This document shows positions 9,292-48,150 of a stretch of 64,000 nt of DNA, in pieces. A program made the position numbers and the translations under genes. The stretch comes from Natrinema pellirubrum DSM 15624 (GTDB taxonomy: Archaea > Halobacteriota > Halobacteria > Halobacteriales > Natrialbaceae): positions 1,550,001-1,614,000 of the forward strand of contig NC_019962.1 in NCBI RefSeq assembly GCF_000230735.2, written 5' to 3'. The notes under the pieces are model-generated. The model was not told where the DNA came from. It made no database searches and saw only the letters and a program-made list of their open reading frames with translations. Positions within the stretch are counted from its first letter, which is position 1, and the number at the start of each line of letters is the position of its first letter.

Positions 9292-10407
9292 ATGCCCGAC
9301 AGTCCCGACCCCCCAGGATGGCTCGTCGAGCGGCCGGGATTGACCGCGCTCGCACTGGCGAGTGTCCTCCTCGCACTGTTCGTTCTGCTGCCGTATCTCC
9401 AGTACGTCCTCTTCGGCGTCGTCCTCGCGTACATCCTGTTGCCGGTTCAGCGACGCCTCGAGGCCTACGTCAGGCCGACGATCGCGGCGCTTGCGGTCGT
9501 GGCGGCGACCCTGCTCGTCGTGTTGTTGCCCCTGATCTACGTCCTCTCGCTCGCTGTCGGCCAGTCGCTCCGACTCGTCCGGTCGATCAGGCAAGGAGAG
9601 ATCGACGTCGAGATGATCGAGTCCATGCTCGAGAGCAATGGGTATGCCGTCGATCTCGTCGCGCTGTACGAGTCGAACCAAGACCGAATCGCGACGGCCG
9701 TTCAGGAGGTCACGAACGGGGCGATCGCACTCTTGGGCAGTCTGCCGAGTATGTTCATCGGACTGACTGTCACGCTGTTCGTTCTCTTTGCCCTGTTGCG
9801 TGACGGGGATCGGCTTGTCTCGTGGCTCCGGTGGGTGTTGCCGATCGAGGACGACGTCCTCGACGAACTCGAGACCGGGCTGGACCGGCTGATGTGGGCG
9901 TCGGTCGTCGGAAACGTCGCCGTCGCAGCCGTTCAGGCGGTGATGCTCGGCGTCGGACTGCTGATCGCCGGCGTTCCGGCCGTTATCTTCCTGACCGTCG
10001 CGACGTTCATCCTGACGCTGCTTCCGTTGGTCGGAGCCTTCGGGATCTGGATCCCGGCGACCATCTACCTGGTCGCGACGGGGCGACTGAGCGCCGGCGT
10101 CGCGATGTTCGTCTACGGGCTGGTCGTCACGTTCTCGGATTCGTACCTCCGGCCCGCGCTGATCGGCCGGTCAAGTGCCTTCAACTCCGCGATCGTGGTC
10201 GTCGGCATCTTCGGCGGCCTCATCGTCTTCGGTGCCGTGGGCCTTTTCATCGGACCCGTCGTCCTCGGCGGGGCGAAACTCACCCTCGACTGTTTCGCGC
10301 GAGCCCGAACGGACGACCCCATCGACGGGGCCGCACCCGACGCCGGCGGGCTAGTCACCGACTCCGAGGGGGAAGCCGACTCGAGCGGCACGGACGATGA
10401 TTCCTGA
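9292..10407 (+). CDS. AI-2E family transporter (PerM-like)
   Basis: A 371-residue membrane protein of the AI-2E/PerM family. Two hydrophobic segments follow the N-terminus (ALALASVLLALFVLLPYLQY and IAALAVVAATLLVVLLPLIY). Then come a soluble helical domain of ~100 residues, a cluster of four to five C-terminal segments, and the family-typical ending where VVVGIFGGLIVFGAVGLFIGPVVLGG is the conserved 'GxxGxxxGP' motif. The family exports or exchanges small solutes and some members are Na+/H+ antiporters; the name does not prove autoinducer transport here. The tail after residue ~340 is an acidic disordered extension. Confidence 0.88.
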   Translation: MPDSPDPPGWLVERPGLTALALASVLLALFVLLPYLQYVLFGVVLAYILLPVQRRLEAYVRPTIAALAVVAATLLVVLLPLIYVLSLAVGQSLRLVRSIRQGEIDVEMIESMLESNGYAVDLVALYESNQDRIATAVQEVTNGAIALLGSLPSMFIGLTVTLFVLFALLRDGDRLVSWLRWVLPIEDDVLDELETGLDRLMWASVVGNVAVAAVQAVMLGVGLLIAGVPAVIFLTVATFILTLLPLVGAFGIWIPATIYLVATGRLSAGVAMFVYGLVVTFSDSYLRPALIGRSSAFNSAIVVVGIFGGLIVFGAVGLFIGPVVLGGAKLTLDCFARARTDDPIDGAAPDAGGLVTDSEGEADSSGTDDDS

Positions 10408-10423
10408 TCGGTCGGCGGCCGAT

Positions 10424-11137
10424 TCAGTCGTTCTTCCAGTCGCCCGGTTCGACGCCGTGGATCTCGCCTTTCGCCTCCCGGTCGTTGGGCCACAGGGCGA
10501 TCGCGAACACGGCCGCGAAAAACAGGACGAGGGCGGCCGCGACGAGCGCGCCGTGGACCCCCGGCAGTTCGGCGGCTTCCGTCCACTGCTGTTCCGGGGT
10601 GAACAGCGTGATTTTGAAGACCCATCCGATCCCGGCGACGGTAAACAGGAGCCCGTATACGCGCCGAATGCGACGGGACAGGGTCTCTCGAACCGAGACC
10701 TTGAACGTCGGGTTTCGGAGGTCGTCGCTCAGTTCCTCACGCCAGGCCGGGTGTTCGACCCCGGTCGGCTCTAGGGCGTTCGCGAATACGTTCTCCTGAA
10801 CGAACCGAACGCGGGCGCGCCAGTGGTCGTAGAACCGGTACCGGCGCACCTCGAAGAACAGGAAGATCGACAGGACGAAGATCCCGATCAGGAGCAGGAA
10901 CGCGGGCATATTCCGGCTCGAGAAGACGATCGAAAGGACGGCGGCGAGCAGCGTGATCGCCCAGTCTGTCGTCCGGTCGATCCGGTCCTGCGCGCTGTTG
11001 GCCTGACTGACTTCGCCGCGGTAGAAGTGCGGCAGGACGTCGAGCAGGAACTCGGATTCGTTCGCGACCGCCGCGCCGATCTCCTGGTCGTCGCGGTCGA
11101 GCGGGCCGCCTCCGTCGGCATCGTCGCTGTCGGTCAT
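10424..11137 (-). CDS. DUF2270 domain-containing membrane protein
   Basis: A 237-residue protein, convergent with the AI-2E gene. The start MTDSDDADG was preferred over an upstream ATG because it lacks basic residues and fits the acidic family N-terminus. Family hallmarks are [17 protein letters not shown], two transmembrane helices around residues 60-100 ([16 protein letters not shown] and [20 protein letters not shown]), the [20 protein letters not shown] stretch, and two more helices near the C-terminus. The function of DUF2270 is unknown; a membrane-bound role is inferred. Confidence 0.85.
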
Positions 11138-11351
11138 GGCACCTCTCGACAGCACCGCCGCGTATAGTCGCCCGTGTGGCGACTGCAGGGGCCGGGACGG
11201 CGAGCGCGGCCGCGATCACCGTCGATCGCACCGAAACGGGTGCGTTCATTATGCCCCCTCCGCTAGAGACCAGTATCGTGTCTCGGATCGAACGCCGCCG
11301 GCGCTGCAGGGAGCGACCGATCGGGTCGATCGACCGGGACCACGGCTAGCT

Positions 11352-12689
11352 ATGCACGGATCACACGCTACGGGGAGCCCCTACGCTCCCCACACGGAGG
11401 AGGACCGCACGGCGATGCTCGAGGCGGTCGGCGCGGACTCCGTCGAGGACCTCTTCGACGTTCCGGACGAGGTCGCGTTTGACGGGCGCTTCGACATCGA
11501 CGCGCGATCGGAACGGGAAACGCGGCGGCTGGTACGCTCGCTGCTGGCCCGCAACGACGAGGTGACCGAACTGCTCGGACGGGGCCACTACGGCTACTAC
11601 GTGCCGTCGCTGGTCGATCACCTCGCGGACCGCTCGGAGTTTCTGACCTCCTACACGCAGTACCAGCCGGAGGTCTCTCAGGGGTTTCTGCAGGCCCTGT
11701 TCGAGTACCAGTCGCTGTTGGTCGAGCTGACCGGGCTCCCGATCGCGAACTGTTCGATGTACGACGCCGCGACGGCGCTGGGCGAGGCCGCGACGCTGGC
11801 CGACCGCATCCGCGACACCACGGGCCACCGTGTCCTCGTCCCCGAACTGCTCCGCGAGGAGCGCCGAAGCACCCTCGAGAACTACGTCGCCGGTACCGAT
11901 CTCGTGGTCGAGTCCTACCCCGTCGAGGACGGGACCGTCGACCTCGCTGGGCTCGAGGCCGCCGCCGACGAGGAGGTCGTCATGATCTACGCCGAGAACC
12001 CCACGGTACGGGGAACGATCGAGGAACGGCTCGAGGCCGTCGGCGACCTCGCCGAGTCCACCGACGCCCTCTTCGTCCTGGGCTCGGACCCGATCGCGCT
12101 CTCCCTGCTCGAGCGCCCCGCCGACGTCGGCGCGGACGTCGTCATCGGCGACGCCAGCGTCCTGGGGCTCCCGACGAGCTACGGGATGGGACTGGGCCTG
12201 TTCGCAACGCGGGAGGACTACCTCCGGCAAGTTCCCGGTCGGCTGGTCGGGGCCAGCGAGGACGCGACCGACCGTCGGGCGTACACGCTGACGCTCCAGA
12301 CCCGCGAACAGCACATCCGTCGGGAGCGAGCCACGAGCAACATCTGTACGAATCAGGCCTGGGTCGCGCTCCGGACCGCGATGCACGCTGCCGTCCTCGG
12401 CCCGAGCGGCATGGTCGACCTCGCGGAGCGCGACGTCCGACGCGCGCGTGATCTCGCGGCCCGACTCGACGAGATCGTCGGCGTCAAAGCGCCGGTCCAC
12501 GACCGCCACCACCTCCGGGAGTTCGTCGCCCGTGTCGACCAGCCCGCCCGCGCCGTCGCATCGGACCTCGAGAAACGGGGCTTTGCGGTCCACGTCGTCG
12601 GCGACCACGAGATCCAGGTCTGTGTCGCCGGCGTCCCCGACGAGCGACTGGATCGCTTCGTCGCGGCGCTCGAGGGGGTGGTTCGATGA
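11352..12689 (+). CDS. gcvPA: glycine dehydrogenase (decarboxylating) subunit 1
   Basis: A 445-residue N-terminal half of the glycine-cleavage P protein, which decarboxylates glycine and passes the aminomethyl group to lipoyl-GcvH. Visible family features are [55 protein letters not shown] and a C-terminal [15 protein letters not shown]. The ATG at 11352 was chosen because [15 protein letters not shown] immediately precedes the conserved body; the ~70 residues of open frame before it are low-quality, Arg-rich sequence. Its last 4 bases overlap gcvPB, so the two subunits are co-translated. gcvT and gcvH are not in view. Confidence 0.94.
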
Positions 12690-19486: not shown

Positions 19487-19560
19487 GGGTTGGTGATCTA
19501 GTCCGGTTATGATACCTCCTTCACACGGAGGAAGCCGGCGGTTCAAATCCGCCCCAACCC
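19487..19560 (+). tRNA. tRNA-Val (CAC anticodon)
   Basis: A complete 74-nt cloverleaf. The acceptor stem is GGGTTGG / CCAACCC. The anticodon stem is CCTCC / GGAGG around loop TTCACAC, giving anticodon CAC for Val GTG codons. The T arm is GGCGG TTCAAAT CCGCC. No intron and no encoded CCA. The 3' half is duplicated 110 bp downstream, so the gene has served as an integration site. Confidence 0.95.
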
Positions 19561-19671
19561 ACTACTTTTGCGCCGAACAACTCGTGAGGCGCAAAGTCGT
19601 GACGTTTGGCGGATTTGAATCAGGGAGTGGAGCGAAGCGGAACGACCGTGGTTCAAATCCGCCCCAACCCA
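19540..19671 (+). repeat. att-like direct repeat of the tRNA-Val 3' end
   Basis: A 22-bp perfect direct repeat starting ggttcaaatccgccc and ending in aaccca occurs at 19540-19561, within and just past the tRNA, and again at 19650-19671. The offset is exactly 110 bp. Tyrosine-recombinase elements leave such copies of the tRNA 3' end. No integrase gene lies between the two copies, so this is a scar, a tandem attachment site or the remnant of a small element. Confidence 0.75.
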
Positions 19672-19926
19672 TTTTCCGACGCGGACTCGTCGCTATGCTC
19701 CTCGTCGTTGCGTCGGAAAAATTGGCACGAATGGATTTGAGCCCAGAGGACAAGCGAAGCGAGTTCTCACGATTCAAATCCATTCATTGAATGGATATTT
19801 TATCATCTCAGATTGTATTTAAAAATCATTCATAATGTGGATTTCTGTACCAGACTAAATATTTGTCTGAATTTATTTCATTCTTAGTGATTACGTTCAA
19901 TGTTACTGTTCCCTCTTTCTCGATCT
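19561..19926. repeat. two tandem hairpin modules after tRNA-Val, then AT-rich DNA
   Basis: Four large inverted repeats follow one another: tttgcgcc / ggcgcaaa (19567-19595), ggcggatttgaa / ttcaaatccgcc (19608-19663), ttttccgacgc / gcgtcggaaaa (19672-19720) and gaatggatttga / tcaaatccattc (19729-19785). The second and fourth have loops that share an agcgaagcg core, so the unit is a pair of hairpins repeated once with a period of about 115 bp. Open frames here only read through the palindromes and are not credible genes. After 19790 the DNA becomes AT-rich. Confidence 0.75.
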
Positions 19927-20484
19927 CTAGTCGAATTCCTTTTCATCAGATGAAAATGGATAGAACACTGATACTGTGAATTCGTCTATTGCAATATAGC
20001 TTGCTTTTAGACCTTTTGTTGCAACGAAAGTTCCAGATTCTGTTGGGGTTTCATAATGTAGGCTCGAGCCATCTAATTCTGCATTAGAACATTTGAAATC
20101 CTCACAAAATATCATATCTTCCACTTTGGATAGAACAAAGTTTTCAACCGGTATTGTCCTAGAAATATTATCTCCAGAACCTTTCCAAGGACTAGAGACA
20201 TCAACTTTTACTGCATCATATTGGTCGCCATTATCATATTTTTGTTCCTTTTTCTCTTTCAATCCAGATCCATGGTATGCAAAAAGTATCTTTTTGAGAC
20301 TTTCTAATATTGGGGCGCCGCGTTGAGTAGTTGAAAATGTGACTTCTCTTTTTTCAGTATTCATCTCTAAGGTTGGATTCTGATCAAGATCACGTTCCCA
20401 ATATACCACATATGGGAGTTGAGATAGGAACTCTAGTATCCGTTCCTCTCTCCAGTATCTCAATCTCTGGTATAAAGAACTTTG
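19927..20484 (-). pseudogene. 3' part of AT-rich membrane-protein gene, split by IS
   Basis: This fragment encodes the last ~185 residues of a protein whose 5' part lies beyond the IS at 20493-21769. It is a soluble, Lys-rich alpha/beta region (VVYWERDLDQNPTLEMN, EVTFSTTQRGAPILES) with two Cys (FCEDFKCSNAELD). The gene is strongly AT-rich and Lys/Ile/Asn-rich, unlike its haloarchaeal neighbours, so it was acquired. A TTG at 20463 is a possible restart but is not a convincing natural start. No family was recognised. Confidence 0.75.
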
Positions 20485-20492
20485 ATTACGAC

Positions 20493-21769
20493 CTCAGCTT
20501 TGCACGCTAGCCTCGGTTGTTGAGTGAACGAAGAGATGATCGATCTCGGTCATAAGGTCATCAACACCGCGGTCATCATTGTCTCGAACCCACGAGAGAA
20601 GGTTGTAGACGGCTTCCTTCAGGGAGTGTTCGAGGTTCGCTCGAAGCGATGACGCCTTCGAGCGAACCGTTCCCAAGGCGCTCGAATCGGGATCAAGACG
20701 AACGAGACTGTAGGCAGCCATCAGGAGGTGCCAGTGGCGACTGGCACCTCCGTCAGTCTGCAGCTCGCAGTCTCCCAAGCCGAGATCCTGCTTCGAGTCC
20801 TCGAAGAACGTCTCGATGCGCCAGCGCATCCCGTAGGAGCGAATGATGTGGGCGGTTGGTGCGTCGGTCTTGTTCGTAGCGAGGTACTTGATCGGGTTAT
20901 CTTCGTCTCCGTCGGTCTCTTTCTCTGCGATGACCAGCTTCACGTCTCCCAACTGGGAGACGGGAAGCTTCTTCGTCCAGATGTGATAGGTTTCGTCGTC
21001 AATATCGCGCTCAACCGTGTCGATGCGCTCTTCCAGCGCATCGACGCGGAGCTCTTTGCCGGCGTAAGTCACCTGTCGATTGCTCCGGAGCGGGCCGATC
21101 CAGTCCTTGCCGTAGGATTCGATGTGTTCAGGAAGGCCAGAATCGTGAGCGAACCACGAGTCGAAGAGGTAGGTGTTCGCAGGCACACCTACCTCTTCTT
21201 CGAGTTCGGTGATGATCTCGCGGGCGAGGTCGTACTTGGTGTCGTGGTCTTGGTCATCCTCGTCTTGCTTTTCGTAGAGGCGGAAGGTGAGCGGGTAAGC
21301 GGTTTTGTCGTCAGCGTAGAAGGCGTAGATGAGGTCTTGCCCCCAGACAGTGTCACCTTCGGCGTGATCGTAGAAGTGGCCGACGCCGGGGACTTCGTCC
21401 CCGGCTTTCTCGGTGATCGTGTCGTCGAGGATAATGTAGCCATCCGTTGACCAGCGTGTTTCACCGTGTTTCTGGAGTTCTTCAAGGCGTTCGTGGTTGA
21501 ACTGCTGTTCGTCCCAGTCGTACTCGGTGAGGAACTTGTTGAGAGCGCGTTTGCTGTTGGCTGGAAGGACTTCGCGTGCGATGCCCGCCACGGTCTTGTT
21601 GCTGGCCGCAACAAGACCTGTGGCGTAGGTTTTGGCGTGATGACGTTGTGCTGGAGACAGCGACTCGAACTCGTCGAACGCACGCGTACACGACAAGAAG
21701 TCCGTAATCGGCATCATCCGTCTTTGCCACCGCCTACGTCACGCTCCTACTTCAACGTGCAAAGCTGAG
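20493..21769 (-). mobile_element. IS element (IS4/IS701-like), 1277 bp
   Basis: The ends are a 14-bp perfect inverted repeat ctcagctttgcacg / cgtgcaaagctgag, flanked by an 8-bp direct repeat attacgac (20485-20492 and 21770-21777). One transposase gene fills the element. Removing the IS plus one repeat restores a single reading frame across the split gene. Its higher GC differs from the AT-rich host gene, marking it as a later arrival. Confidence 0.92.
20494..21717 (-). CDS. DDE transposase of IS4/IS701-like element
   Basis: A 407-residue transposase. Catalytic landmarks are YIILDDTITEKAGDEVPGVG (first Asp), NTYLFDSWFAHDSGLP (second Asp) and RWRIETFFEDSKQDLGLGDC (the Y-x2-R-W-x-I-E-x-F signature with the catalytic Glu). 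The N-terminal helical domain starts MMPITDFLSCTRAFDEF. The stop TGA overlaps the terminal inverted repeat, so the element is compact. The reading frame is intact, so the element could be active. I could not decide between the IS4 and IS701 families by eye; the 8-bp target repeat argues against the usual 4-bp IS701 pattern. Confidence 0.9.
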   Translation of the reverse strand: MMPITDFLSCTRAFDEFESLSPAQRHHAKTYATGLVAASNKTVAGIAREVLPANSKRALNKFLTEYDWDEQQFNHERLEELQKHGETRWSTDGYIILDDTITEKAGDEVPGVGHFYDHAEGDTVWGQDLIYAFYADDKTAYPLTFRLYEKQDEDDQDHDTKYDLAREIITELEEEVGVPANTYLFDSWFAHDSGLPEHIESYGKDWIGPLRSNRQVTYAGKELRVDALEERIDTVERDIDDETYHIWTKKLPVSQLGDVKLVIAEKETDGDEDNPIKYLATNKTDAPTAHIIRSYGMRWRIETFFEDSKQDLGLGDCELQTDGGASRHWHLLMAAYSLVRLDPDSSALGTVRSKASSLRANLEHSLKEAVYNLLSWVRDNDDRGVDDLMTEIDHLFVHSTTEASVQS

Positions 21770-22726
21770 ATTACGACTATATTTCAACCTACATATTATT
21801 CTCTCACCACCGGCTATTGTTTTTTGTTGTTTAGTAGAACTTAGCAGTGCCTTAGATACTTTGGTTGTATAGAAACCTATATGTCCAGAATTGATAGAAT
21901 CAACAACAACTATGGCCGTGTTATTTTCAATTAATGCTTCTAACGCCCAATCATATGGCCACAGTTCCTTTTGGAATTGTCCATCATCAAAGTACAGATC
22001 CTCAGGAAGAGAAAAAGTGAGAGTTGCTTTCCCTGAAAAATGCCCCTGTGGTAAGTATTTCTTCTTCCCCTCGACAAGTATGTATGAGAATTCATATTCA
22101 AATTCATTACCGTCAGTATTTAGCGAAATATTGTCGTTCTTAAAACGATTATTCAATCCTTCTTCAATATCCCACTTGCTTGGTATTGCGGCTTCCCTCC
22201 AGCCTAAGTATGAAAATACTACTGTTCCTACCGTCAGTATTATGCTGAGAATTGTTATTTCATTATCTAATGACCATCCGGCTATAACTACAAGAGTAGA
22301 AATAAAGACATCAAACTGTGTGTTCCATACATATATAAATCCAAGACTGAGGGATGAAATCATTGATATTTGGTAGCTTTTCGGGTGGATTCTTCCCTCC
22401 ATTCTTTGTTTGCTTATATACAGCAAGAATATTATTATCGATAATGAGTTCGATATATAAAAGTTGAAAAGGAGGCTGATAACACCATATATCAAACATA
22501 GTATCAATCCAGACACTATTGCTGCGATTATATTTTTCTTGATTATCTCTTTTAGATCTTTGATCTTTCCTCCACCACCAAATATAAAATATAAGATTAG
22601 CAATAGTAGAATGGTAGAGAATATAATGGGTGAATCTGCTATTTCACTCCTAGAAGCGAGAGATATATCGGTGATAGTAGAGAAGTTGATTTGACCGGTT
22701 CTACCGACGTTATACGTTAACCTCAT
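21770..22726 (-). pseudogene. 5' part of AT-rich polytopic membrane-protein gene, split by IS
   Basis: This fragment encodes 319 residues before the insertion. Five to six hydrophobic helices occupy the N-terminal ~190 residues (IIFSTILLLLILYFIFGGGG, IIAAIVSGLILCLIYGVISLLFNFY, ISMISSLSLGFIYVW, VFISTLVVIAGW, ITILSIILTVGTVVFSYLGW). A cytoplasmic region follows, with strands such as EYEFSYILVEGKKKYLPQ and TAIVVVDSINSGHIGF. Joined across one attacgac copy it runs into the fragment at 19927-20484, giving 504 residues (…RLKYSRN|QSSLYQRLRY). The reading frame extends ~6 codons into the IS. The family is unknown; AT-rich codon use marks acquired DNA. Confidence 0.8.
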
Positions 22727-22843
22727 CTATCAAAAATCAACTAGCCTGTTTATCACTAATCCTTTTCGTTCCAGTAGATATAAATTAGTTGAGTGTATTA
22801 CATGATGACTATTCATCTGATAAGCTAGCTAGATTGGTTGATG

Positions 22844-22990
22844 CTATGAATCAACCTTATTCGCTACCACTGCAGACGGCTGACGACACCCACAGGGCCA
22901 CGCATAGCATTCCCCGGGGCCGAGACAGTGGGTGATCAGTACGTCGCGGCCACAGCGTGAACACGTCCCGAGCGTGCCGTCGGAACTCAT
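22844..22990 (-). CDS. small zinc-knuckle protein (48 aa), island-edge
   Basis: A 48-residue protein starting MSSDGTLGTCSRCGRDVLITHCLG. It has a C-S-R-C pair and later Cys residues (GECYAWPCGC), five Cys in all, consistent with a zinc ribbon. An alternative ATG 20 codons upstream is less likely because that stretch is Arg-rich. Its last codons fall where GC content drops into the AT-rich island, so the C-terminus may have been altered at an island junction. The function is unknown. Confidence 0.5.
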   Translation of the reverse strand: MSSDGTLGTCSRCGRDVLITHCLGPGECYAWPCGCRQPSAVVANKVDS

Positions 22991-47370: not shown

Positions 47371-48150
47371 TTAAACAACTTGGACCAAGAGCGAGATTAT
47401 AGATATAATGATGATGCCTGCTGGTAGCCACCAGTATCGTTCCGTTCTATTTCGGACATGTACGTTCACAGATCCATTACTGAGTTCTACTGACCCATCA
47501 TCACCATAGAGAAAAGTCACATTAATCGGGTAGTCACCGCTATATGAATTCCTACTTAGCACTGACGCACTCTTCGTATTAATTCTTAACTGAAGTGGCG
47601 GGTAATCATCTACGAACGATTCAAGAATCGGAATTGGGTAACCCTCTACCCCACTTGGGTCCCTATATGAGACTCCATTTTTTATACCTGGGTCATCAGC
47701 AAATCCTACTTTCGGGATAAAGAGTCTCACCTCAGGACCTAAAAAGCTAACATTCTTTAACAATCCAAGCCGGGAAGCGGGCTCTCCTCGTAAGAGTCGT
47801 GGTATTTCATAATCATCGGTCATTTCCCCTATGAAGCCGGATTGTAACTCAGCGGGAAATTGTTCTTCTGCAAGAATATTATCTAAAGAATGGTGAATTG
47901 AAAGTCTGTTTATATCGGGCACCCCATATCCGGCTACGTAGATATCAAGTACTATTTCATCACCTGGATCGATTTTCGGTGTTTTCAAAATAGGCTGTAT
48001 TTGGTAATTTGGCTCAACATTCGGGTACTTTACTGCATCATCTGTTGATACTGAATATTTATCAGCTACCTTTCCAATTACTTCGTCAGCAAGTAGGTCG
48101 ATATTGATATCAGCTATTTCCTCAGCAGATTCAACAGGTCTAATTGCCAT
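47371..48150 (-). CDS. AT-rich orphan, tail-anchored protein (259 aa)
   Basis: A 259-residue protein that I do not recognise. It begins MAIRPVESAEEIADINIDLLADEVIGKVADKY. The middle is beta-rich (PGDEIVLDIYVAGYG, PLQLRINTKSASVLSRNSYSGDYPINVTFLYGDDG) and resembles an Ig- or CARDB-like fold. A single C-terminal helix, YWWLPAGIIIISIISLLVQVV, would anchor it in the membrane. The gene is strikingly AT-rich with many Ile/Asn/Tyr codons, unlike the gvp genes and mutS around it, so it was probably acquired. It is flanked by a frameshifted remnant. Confidence 0.75.
   Translation of the reverse strand: MAIRPVESAEEIADINIDLLADEVIGKVADKYSVSTDDAVKYPNVEPNYQIQPILKTPKIDPGDEIVLDIYVAGYGVPDINRLSIHHSLDNILAEEQFPAELQSGFIGEMTDDYEIPRLLRGEPASRLGLLKNVSFLGPEVRLFIPKVGFADDPGIKNGVSYRDPSGVEGYPIPILESFVDDYPPLQLRINTKSASVLSRNSYSGDYPINVTFLYGDDGSVELSNGSVNVHVRNRTERYWWLPAGIIIISIISLLVQVV

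What the first reader, a model, noticed from the sequence alone, without database searches (positions are those of the whole stretch)
19927..22726. A second IS splits an AT-rich 504-residue membrane protein; joining restores one frame
Seen directly: 14-bp perfect terminal repeats, an 8-bp target repeat attacgac at both edges, and identical reading frame on both sides after removal. The joined protein has 5-6 membrane helices and a long cytoplasmic part, uses Lys/Ile/Asn codons unlike the rest of the window, and is the only sizeable gene in an island next to a tRNA. I found no family match by eye. Annotators would list two unrelated hypotheticals.
Basis: seen in the sequence. Interest (0 to 1): 0.6.

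Follow-up and report, generated by a model that had tools for sequence, protein, structure and literature searches.

The report
Mobile DNA interrupts a provirus-type membrane gene
In a salt-loving archaeon a recently copied insertion sequence has cut in two a foreign membrane-protein gene beside a tRNA, and part of that protein is a distant relative of an unnamed family of membrane-anchored proteins that tends to sit in integrated viruses and plasmids; what it does is still unknown.

Summary
A 1,277-bp IS701-family element (20493-21769; 14-bp perfect terminal repeats, 8-bp target repeat) lies in one 504-codon frame. Stop-free frames in 1,000 shuffles of the island without the IS reach 185 codons at most. 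Three other identical IS copies are in the genome, so the insertion is recent. The gene is foreign in composition (GC3 0.31 against about 0.9) and lies downstream of tRNA-Val, where a sister genome carries other cargo between the same flanks.

Residues 155-255 match, distantly, an unnamed haloarchaeal family of 165-200-residue proteins: one membrane helix, then a cytoplasmic domain with a K-Y-x2-G-x3-G pattern. Ten of 16 relatives lie within 10 kb of a phage-type integrase (0.57 expected). Five clearly, and one weakly, have pleolipovirus core genes within about 6 kb. The extra helices and the C-terminal 185 residues have no relative found.

Most likely this was an accessory membrane gene of an integrated virus or plasmid, perhaps one that excludes other viruses, now broken. 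Function is inference. The IS cut leaves the conserved domain whole in a 324-residue product.

The parts
19487..19562 (+). tRNA-Val (CAC), the site the island adjoins
   Evidence: ARAGORN; Rfam tRNA
19650..19671 (+). exact second copy of the last 22 bases of the tRNA (first copy 19540-19561): attachment-site-like scar
   Evidence: 0 expected in 100 shuffles
19608..19663 (.). inverted repeat that includes the second tRNA end
   Evidence: DNA folding z -3.7
19729..19785 (.). second inverted repeat with the same AGCGAAGCG loop motif
   Evidence: z -4.0
19790..22860 (.). AT-rich island (1,785 bp and 35% GC without the IS); borders are approximate, set by where similarity to sister genome G025 stops and resumes
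21778..22726 (-). 5' part of the split gene: membrane helices plus the family domain; broken product 324 aa ends at 21752
21962..22264 (-). stretch (residues 155-255) matching the small provirus-associated family
   Evidence: jackknife profile 41.4 bits, best of 1,000 shuffles 7.4
21770..21777 (.). target repeat copy attacgac (right)
20493..21769 (-). IS701-family insertion sequence, 1,277 bp, 14-bp perfect ends
20494..21717 (-). transposase, 407 aa
   Evidence: NF033540; 4 identical copies in the genome
20485..20492 (.). target repeat copy attacgac (left)
19927..20492 (-). 3' part of the split gene (C-terminal about 185 residues plus stop), no relatives found

Best explanation
Shown: an IS701-family element has recently inserted into a 504-codon foreign gene that sits as single cargo in a small island downstream of tRNA-Val. 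Shown, but distant: residues 155-255 belong to an unnamed haloarchaeal family (one membrane helix, then a cytoplasmic alpha/beta domain with K-Y-x2-G-x3-G) whose members cluster in integrated viruses and plasmids. Inferred: the gene came in as an accessory gene of such an element, of which only it and a copy of the tRNA end remain. Inferred and weak: the membrane part anchors, or forms a pore under the control of, the cytoplasmic domain, and the protein acts on the host membrane against competing viruses (superinfection exclusion or single-gene defence). The IS has inactivated or truncated it; the 324-residue remnant keeps all of the conserved domain.
For: IS anatomy and frame. Foreign composition and cargo swap at the same flanks. 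Duplicated tRNA end; a second 3' end is seen downstream of this tRNA in 9 of 29 same-genus loci, window included. Family: a profile of 11 relatives without the window sequence scores it 41.4 bits, best of 1,000 local shuffles 7.4; the part without any membrane helix scores 21.0. With the three closest relatives removed as well it still scores 25.3, against 7.9 for the best shuffle and 11.6 for the best of 1,060 natural ORFs other than the window's own N-terminal half, which is among those ORFs and scores 26.1. Mobile context: 10 of 16 relatives within 10 kb of a PF00589 integrase, 0.57 expected. Pleolipovirus ATPase or spike genes near 6 of 16, one of them weakly, confirmed against isolate genomes for three loci. 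Neighbouring R-M genes: Eco57I-type in L087 and L085, C5-methylase in L086.
Against: The island holds no integrase or virus core gene (and the integrase positions: nearest 114 kb), so its virus origin is by analogy. Profiles from only four distant relatives do not find the window protein (2.0 and 3.9 bits, inside the noise). All relatives were found in a chain that began with the window protein. None of 11 isolate pleolipovirus genomes carries a detectable member. Some relatives are not near an integrase, for example G169, a lone AT-rich gene. No defence model matches. No structure of usable confidence.
Confidence: 0.55

Rival explanations
1. The gene is a structural or assembly protein of a provirus (a membrane protein of the virion) and not a protein acting on competitors.
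For: Six of 16 relatives lie near pleolipovirus core genes; pleolipovirus particles are membrane vesicles (abstract start of PMC7547991 in the listing).
Against: None of 11 isolate pleolipovirus genomes encodes a detectable member, and relatives also sit beside R-M genes, on a plasmid and alone.
Confidence: 0.15
2. The protein is an unrelated orphan membrane protein (for example a host stress or transport accessory); the similarity to the small family is a shared helix-plus-charged-linker pattern.
For: Four-member sub-profiles miss it; identity to single relatives is about 23-30% over short stretches; nothing else matches the other 400 residues.
Against: The helix-free part alone scores 21.0 bits against 7.4 for the best shuffle, and K, Y, G, G of the pattern are kept in all five rows of A1.
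Confidence: 0.25
3. Two genes were joined by chance: the IS landed between, or scrambled, two independent genes.
For: The C-terminal half has no relative and the family domain ends before the joint.
Against: Exact target repeat, one continuous 504-codon frame, no start codon right at the joint in the 3' part (the listed ORF there begins at a TTG, 20463), shuffles reach 185 codons at most.
Confidence: 0.04

Closest known systems
IS701-family insertion sequences ISHti12 (Halorhabdus tiamatea) and ISHala4 (Halobiforma lacisalsi)
   Same: 91% DNA identity over the whole 1,277 bp to the records so annotated; transposase over the NF033540 cut-off
   Different: Target repeats of the four identical copies are 8, 7, 7 and 6 bp; I recall 4 bp for the type element, not checked
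Hypothetical protein WP_330633640.1 on plasmid NZ_CP071308.1 of Halocatena (Actinarchaeum) halophila
   Same: Last helix plus a shared F-[AS]-Y-L-x-W ... A-A-I-x-S ... R stretch and KYLP with the two glycines; one of the closest relatives
   Different: 167 residues with one helix; lacks the extra N-terminal helices and the C-terminal 185 residues
Betapleolipoviruses and their proviruses (SNJ2, HRPV-3, HHPV-3/4, Harhisp1)
   Same: Core genes of these lie beside several family members; they integrate at tRNA 3' ends (PMC8371274, passages read)
   Different: No core gene in this island; no family member detectable in the 11 isolate pleolipovirus genomes read
Single-gene membrane exclusion or abortive-infection proteins (recalled, for example lambda RexB)
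   Same: Membrane anchor plus accessory-gene setting in a mobile element
   Different: No sequence match to any PADLOC model; the resemblance is of setting only

Membership tests
IS701-family insertion sequence | Transposase over the curated NF033540 cut-off | tested here: met
   261.3 bits against a cut-off of 150
IS701-family insertion sequence | Inverted terminal repeats bounding an element of constant length | tested here: met
   14-bp perfect ends, four identical 1,277-bp copies
IS701-family insertion sequence | Target repeat of fixed length (4 bp recalled, from no call) | tested here: inconclusive
   8, 7, 7 and 6 bp at the four copies
Unnamed haloarchaeal TM + K-Y-x2-G-x3-G family | Scores above decoys against a profile built without it | tested here: met
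   41.4 bits against 7.4; 25.3 bits with the three closest relatives removed
Unnamed haloarchaeal TM + K-Y-x2-G-x3-G family | Found by small independent sub-profiles (a check of mine, not a defining feature of the family) | tested here: not met
   2.0 and 3.9 bits with two four-member profiles, inside the noise; the link runs through L083, L091 and L084
Unnamed haloarchaeal TM + K-Y-x2-G-x3-G family | Same fold of the cytoplasmic domain | tested here: inconclusive
   Models at pLDDT 39.8 and 42.8
Pleolipovirus provirus | Spike, ATPase or ORF6/ORF7-like core genes in the element | tested here: not met
   None in the window or L122 at E 1e-4
Pleolipovirus provirus | Integrase and a matching att pair at a tRNA 3' end | tested here: not met
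   tRNA end duplicated 110 bp away, but no copy of 10 or more bases at the right border and nearest integrase 114 kb away
Known anti-phage defence proteins (PADLOC 2.0) | Match to any model | tested here: not met
   0 families for both halves and the joined protein

The most novel reading that the evidence does not exclude
The 504-residue protein is a single-gene antiviral effector: a cytoplasmic sensor domain, scattered as a one-helix protein through haloarchaeal proviruses, fused to a multi-helix membrane pore and a private C-terminal module. It would be a haloarchaeal counterpart of bacterial exclusion proteins, lost here by IS insertion because it is costly.
Probability: 0.12. Interest if true: 0.55.

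Novelty: new variant of a known kind. Interest (0 to 1): 0.33.

Why it matters
The IS insertion itself is ordinary. What is new is the lead: an unnamed, fast-diverging haloarchaeal membrane-anchored family without a Pfam model that is strongly enriched beside integrases, with pleolipovirus core genes or restriction-modification genes near several members. Accessory genes in such positions are where archaeal defence and virus-exclusion functions are looked for, and few are known in haloarchaea (general knowledge). Small intact members exist in sequenced genomes and can be tested in a laboratory Haloferax strain.

Tried and rejected
Looked for close relatives of the whole protein: 29 same-genus genomes (only the genome itself), 391 class genomes (five other genomes, all with E above 1e-3), viral contigs, genome contigs, plasmids, phages: none close. 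Of the weak hits, three were rejected: L012, L014 and L015 align to helices of an unrelated transporter or to nothing (for L012 and L015 the script picked a reading frame other than the matched one, so those two rest on the L014 twin and on the weak E-value). L011 and L013 opened the family.

Family scans of viral contigs with single relatives or A4 gave nothing. Relatives of E 7.6e-5 to 6.8e-3 (G062, G264, G267, G068, G069, G045, G222) were dropped before the counts; the 16 relatives counted are the other 15 plus G393. A last family-wide search (125 genomes) found no second long version; its hits to G387, G166 and G264 were not followed.

Structure models of both halves were too poor to compare with any library. 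A second copy of the domain in the C-terminal half was considered (a strand-helix unit looks alike) and rejected: the C-terminal half scores -1.2 bits. I first called the small integrases near relatives 'SNJ2-like' in a note; only PF00589/PHROG integrase matches were shown for them, so that label is withdrawn. Integrases similar to those of pleolipoviruses were found in L084, L089, L117 and L121.

Papers: PMC8371274 and PMC10599561 by passages; others only as search listings. Those searches showed no paper describing this gene or family; they were few and narrow.

Full report
What is there. The window (G000:C1:1550001-1614000) carries tRNA-Val(CAC) at 19487-19562, followed by an AT-rich stretch up to about 22,860. 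In it lies an insertion sequence, 20493-21769, 1,277 bp, with 14-bp perfect inverted ends and the target repeat attacgac on both sides. Its 407-aa ORF is an IS701-family transposase (NF033540, E 1.5e-77), and the element is 91% identical to records annotated as ISHti12 and ISHala4. The genome holds three further copies identical over all 1,277 bp, with target repeats of 7, 7 and 6 bp, plus divergent remnants. The insertion is therefore real and recent.

The split gene. Leaving out the element and one target copy joins 22726-21778 and 20492-19927 into one frame of 504 codons that starts with ATG right behind an in-frame stop. In 1,000 dinucleotide shuffles of the island without the IS (1,785 bp, 35% GC), the longest stop-free frame was 185 codons. 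Codon positions are those of a foreign gene: GC3 0.31, against 0.90-0.92 in three native genes. The IS leaves a 324-residue ORF on the 5' side (319 native residues plus five from the IS) and a 3' remainder without a start at the joint.

The place. A same-genus genome (G025) has the same flanks, about 92% identical on both sides, but other cargo between them: an Na/Ca-exchanger-like and an Na/Pi-cotransporter-like ORF, named by eye. The last 22 bases of the tRNA are repeated exactly 110 bp downstream inside an inverted repeat, and a second inverted repeat follows. A second tRNA 3' end is present downstream in 9 of 29 same-genus loci, window included. No copy of 10 or more bases of the tRNA end is found at the right border, and the nearest integrase gene is 114 kb away. 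So this is an integration hotspot with the scar of an old event, not an intact element.

Relatives. Pfam, NCBIfam, PHROGs and PADLOC give nothing convincing for the halves or the whole (NCBIfam was asked for the halves only), and neither does the PDB. Close relatives are absent from 28 other same-genus genomes, and from the viral, genome, plasmid and phage collections as searched. A 391-genome search of the class gave five weak hits. Two of these, L011 and L013, share with residues 146-216 a last helix, a charged linker and a helix. Searching with L013 gave two more, and a five-row alignment keeps K, Y, G and G of K-Y-x2-G-x3-G in every row (only the second G is kept in all 12 rows of A2). Its profile found more in the class, and a 12-row profile found matches in 23 of 382 genomes at E 0.01 or better. 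The typical member is 165-200 residues: one helix, positive residues, a helix, then strands (strands by eye). No Pfam model or PDB chain fits the family.

How firm is the link. A profile of 11 relatives without the window sequence gives the joined protein 41.4 bits over residues 155-255. The best of 1,000 locally shuffled copies scores 7.4, the part without any membrane helix 21.0, and the C-terminal half alone -1.2. With the three closest relatives (L083, L091, L084) removed from a 15-member set, the window still scores 25.3, against 7.9 for the best shuffle and 11.6 for the best of 1,060 natural ORFs other than the window's own N-terminal half, which is among those ORFs and scores 26.1. Against the link: two four-member sub-profiles score 2.0 and 3.9, inside the noise, and the whole family was found in a chain that began with the window protein. 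I take the link as likely but distant. The extra N-terminal helices and the C-terminal 185 residues were seen in no relative.

Where the family lives. Of 16 relatives taken for counting (weak hits dropped, see Tried and rejected), 8 lie within 5 kb and 10 within 10 kb of a PF00589 integrase, where 0.30 and 0.57 are expected from the integrase density of the same genomes. Six of 16 loci have a pleolipovirus ATPase, spike, VP3, ORF6 or ORF7 match at E 1e-4 or better within about 6 kb: L087, L090, L117, L118 and L119 clearly, L085 weakly. The window, L122 and two other loci (L027, L028) have none. The spikes of L119 and L117 and the ATPase of L118 match isolate pleolipoviruses at 40.7%, 37.5% and 49.5% identity in the top rows. 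One member lies directly behind an Eco57I-type methylase (L087), one behind a C5-methylase (L086), and L085 has an Eco57I-type gene close by. One is on a 99.7-kb plasmid of Halocatena halophila. None of 11 isolate pleolipovirus genomes has a detectable member, so the gene is accessory and not core.

Reading. The order positive residues after the helix, then the domain, suggests a cytoplasmic domain anchored in the membrane (inference). Accessory, fast-diverging membrane proteins of temperate elements often act on competitors, and R-M neighbours fit that, but nothing here tests it. I commit to 'accessory membrane protein of an integrated element, probably excluding or sensing other viruses, now broken by an IS', with the first part likely and the function a guess. 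The IS leaves the family domain complete in the 324-residue remnant, so partial function is possible.

Limits. AlphaFold had two sequences at most to work with and gave pLDDT 39.8 and 42.8, too low for any fold comparison. Topology and the number of helices (about four separate hydropathy peaks; six helices in the poor model) remain unproved.

Noticed in passing
window 47371-48150 (-): A second lone AT-rich gene (259 aa, one C-terminal hydrophobic helix) in a GC dip to 0.44; the same style of single foreign membrane gene as the one studied here.
   Followed up: no
L119:5705-5938, L090:5729-5977, L087:1011-1307: TatA-like small ORFs (by eye and by motif) stand directly beside the family member in two pleolipovirus-like loci and nearby in a third; spikes of such elements look Tat-exported by eye. 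No TatA-like motif in the 11 isolate pleolipovirus genomes by the same pattern.
   Followed up: partly
window 19608-19663 and 19729-19785: Hairpins with an AGCGAAGCG loop follow the tRNA, the first containing a copy of its 3' end, and similar ones recur in several same-genus loci. Possibly part of an integrase recognition site.
   Followed up: partly
L001-L004 (G000 copies of the IS): Four sequence-identical IS copies have target repeats of 8, 7, 7 and 6 bp, an unusual spread for one element.
   Followed up: partly
L027 (G025:C59), about 10165-12340: The same tRNA-Val slot in a sister genome holds two ion-transporter-like genes in place of the island.
   Followed up: no
G000:C1:1706470-1710585 (L005, L006): A 2,416-bp stretch with the same IS ends holds a 96%-identical transposase part and a second piece: an older, interrupted copy of the IS.
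   Followed up: no
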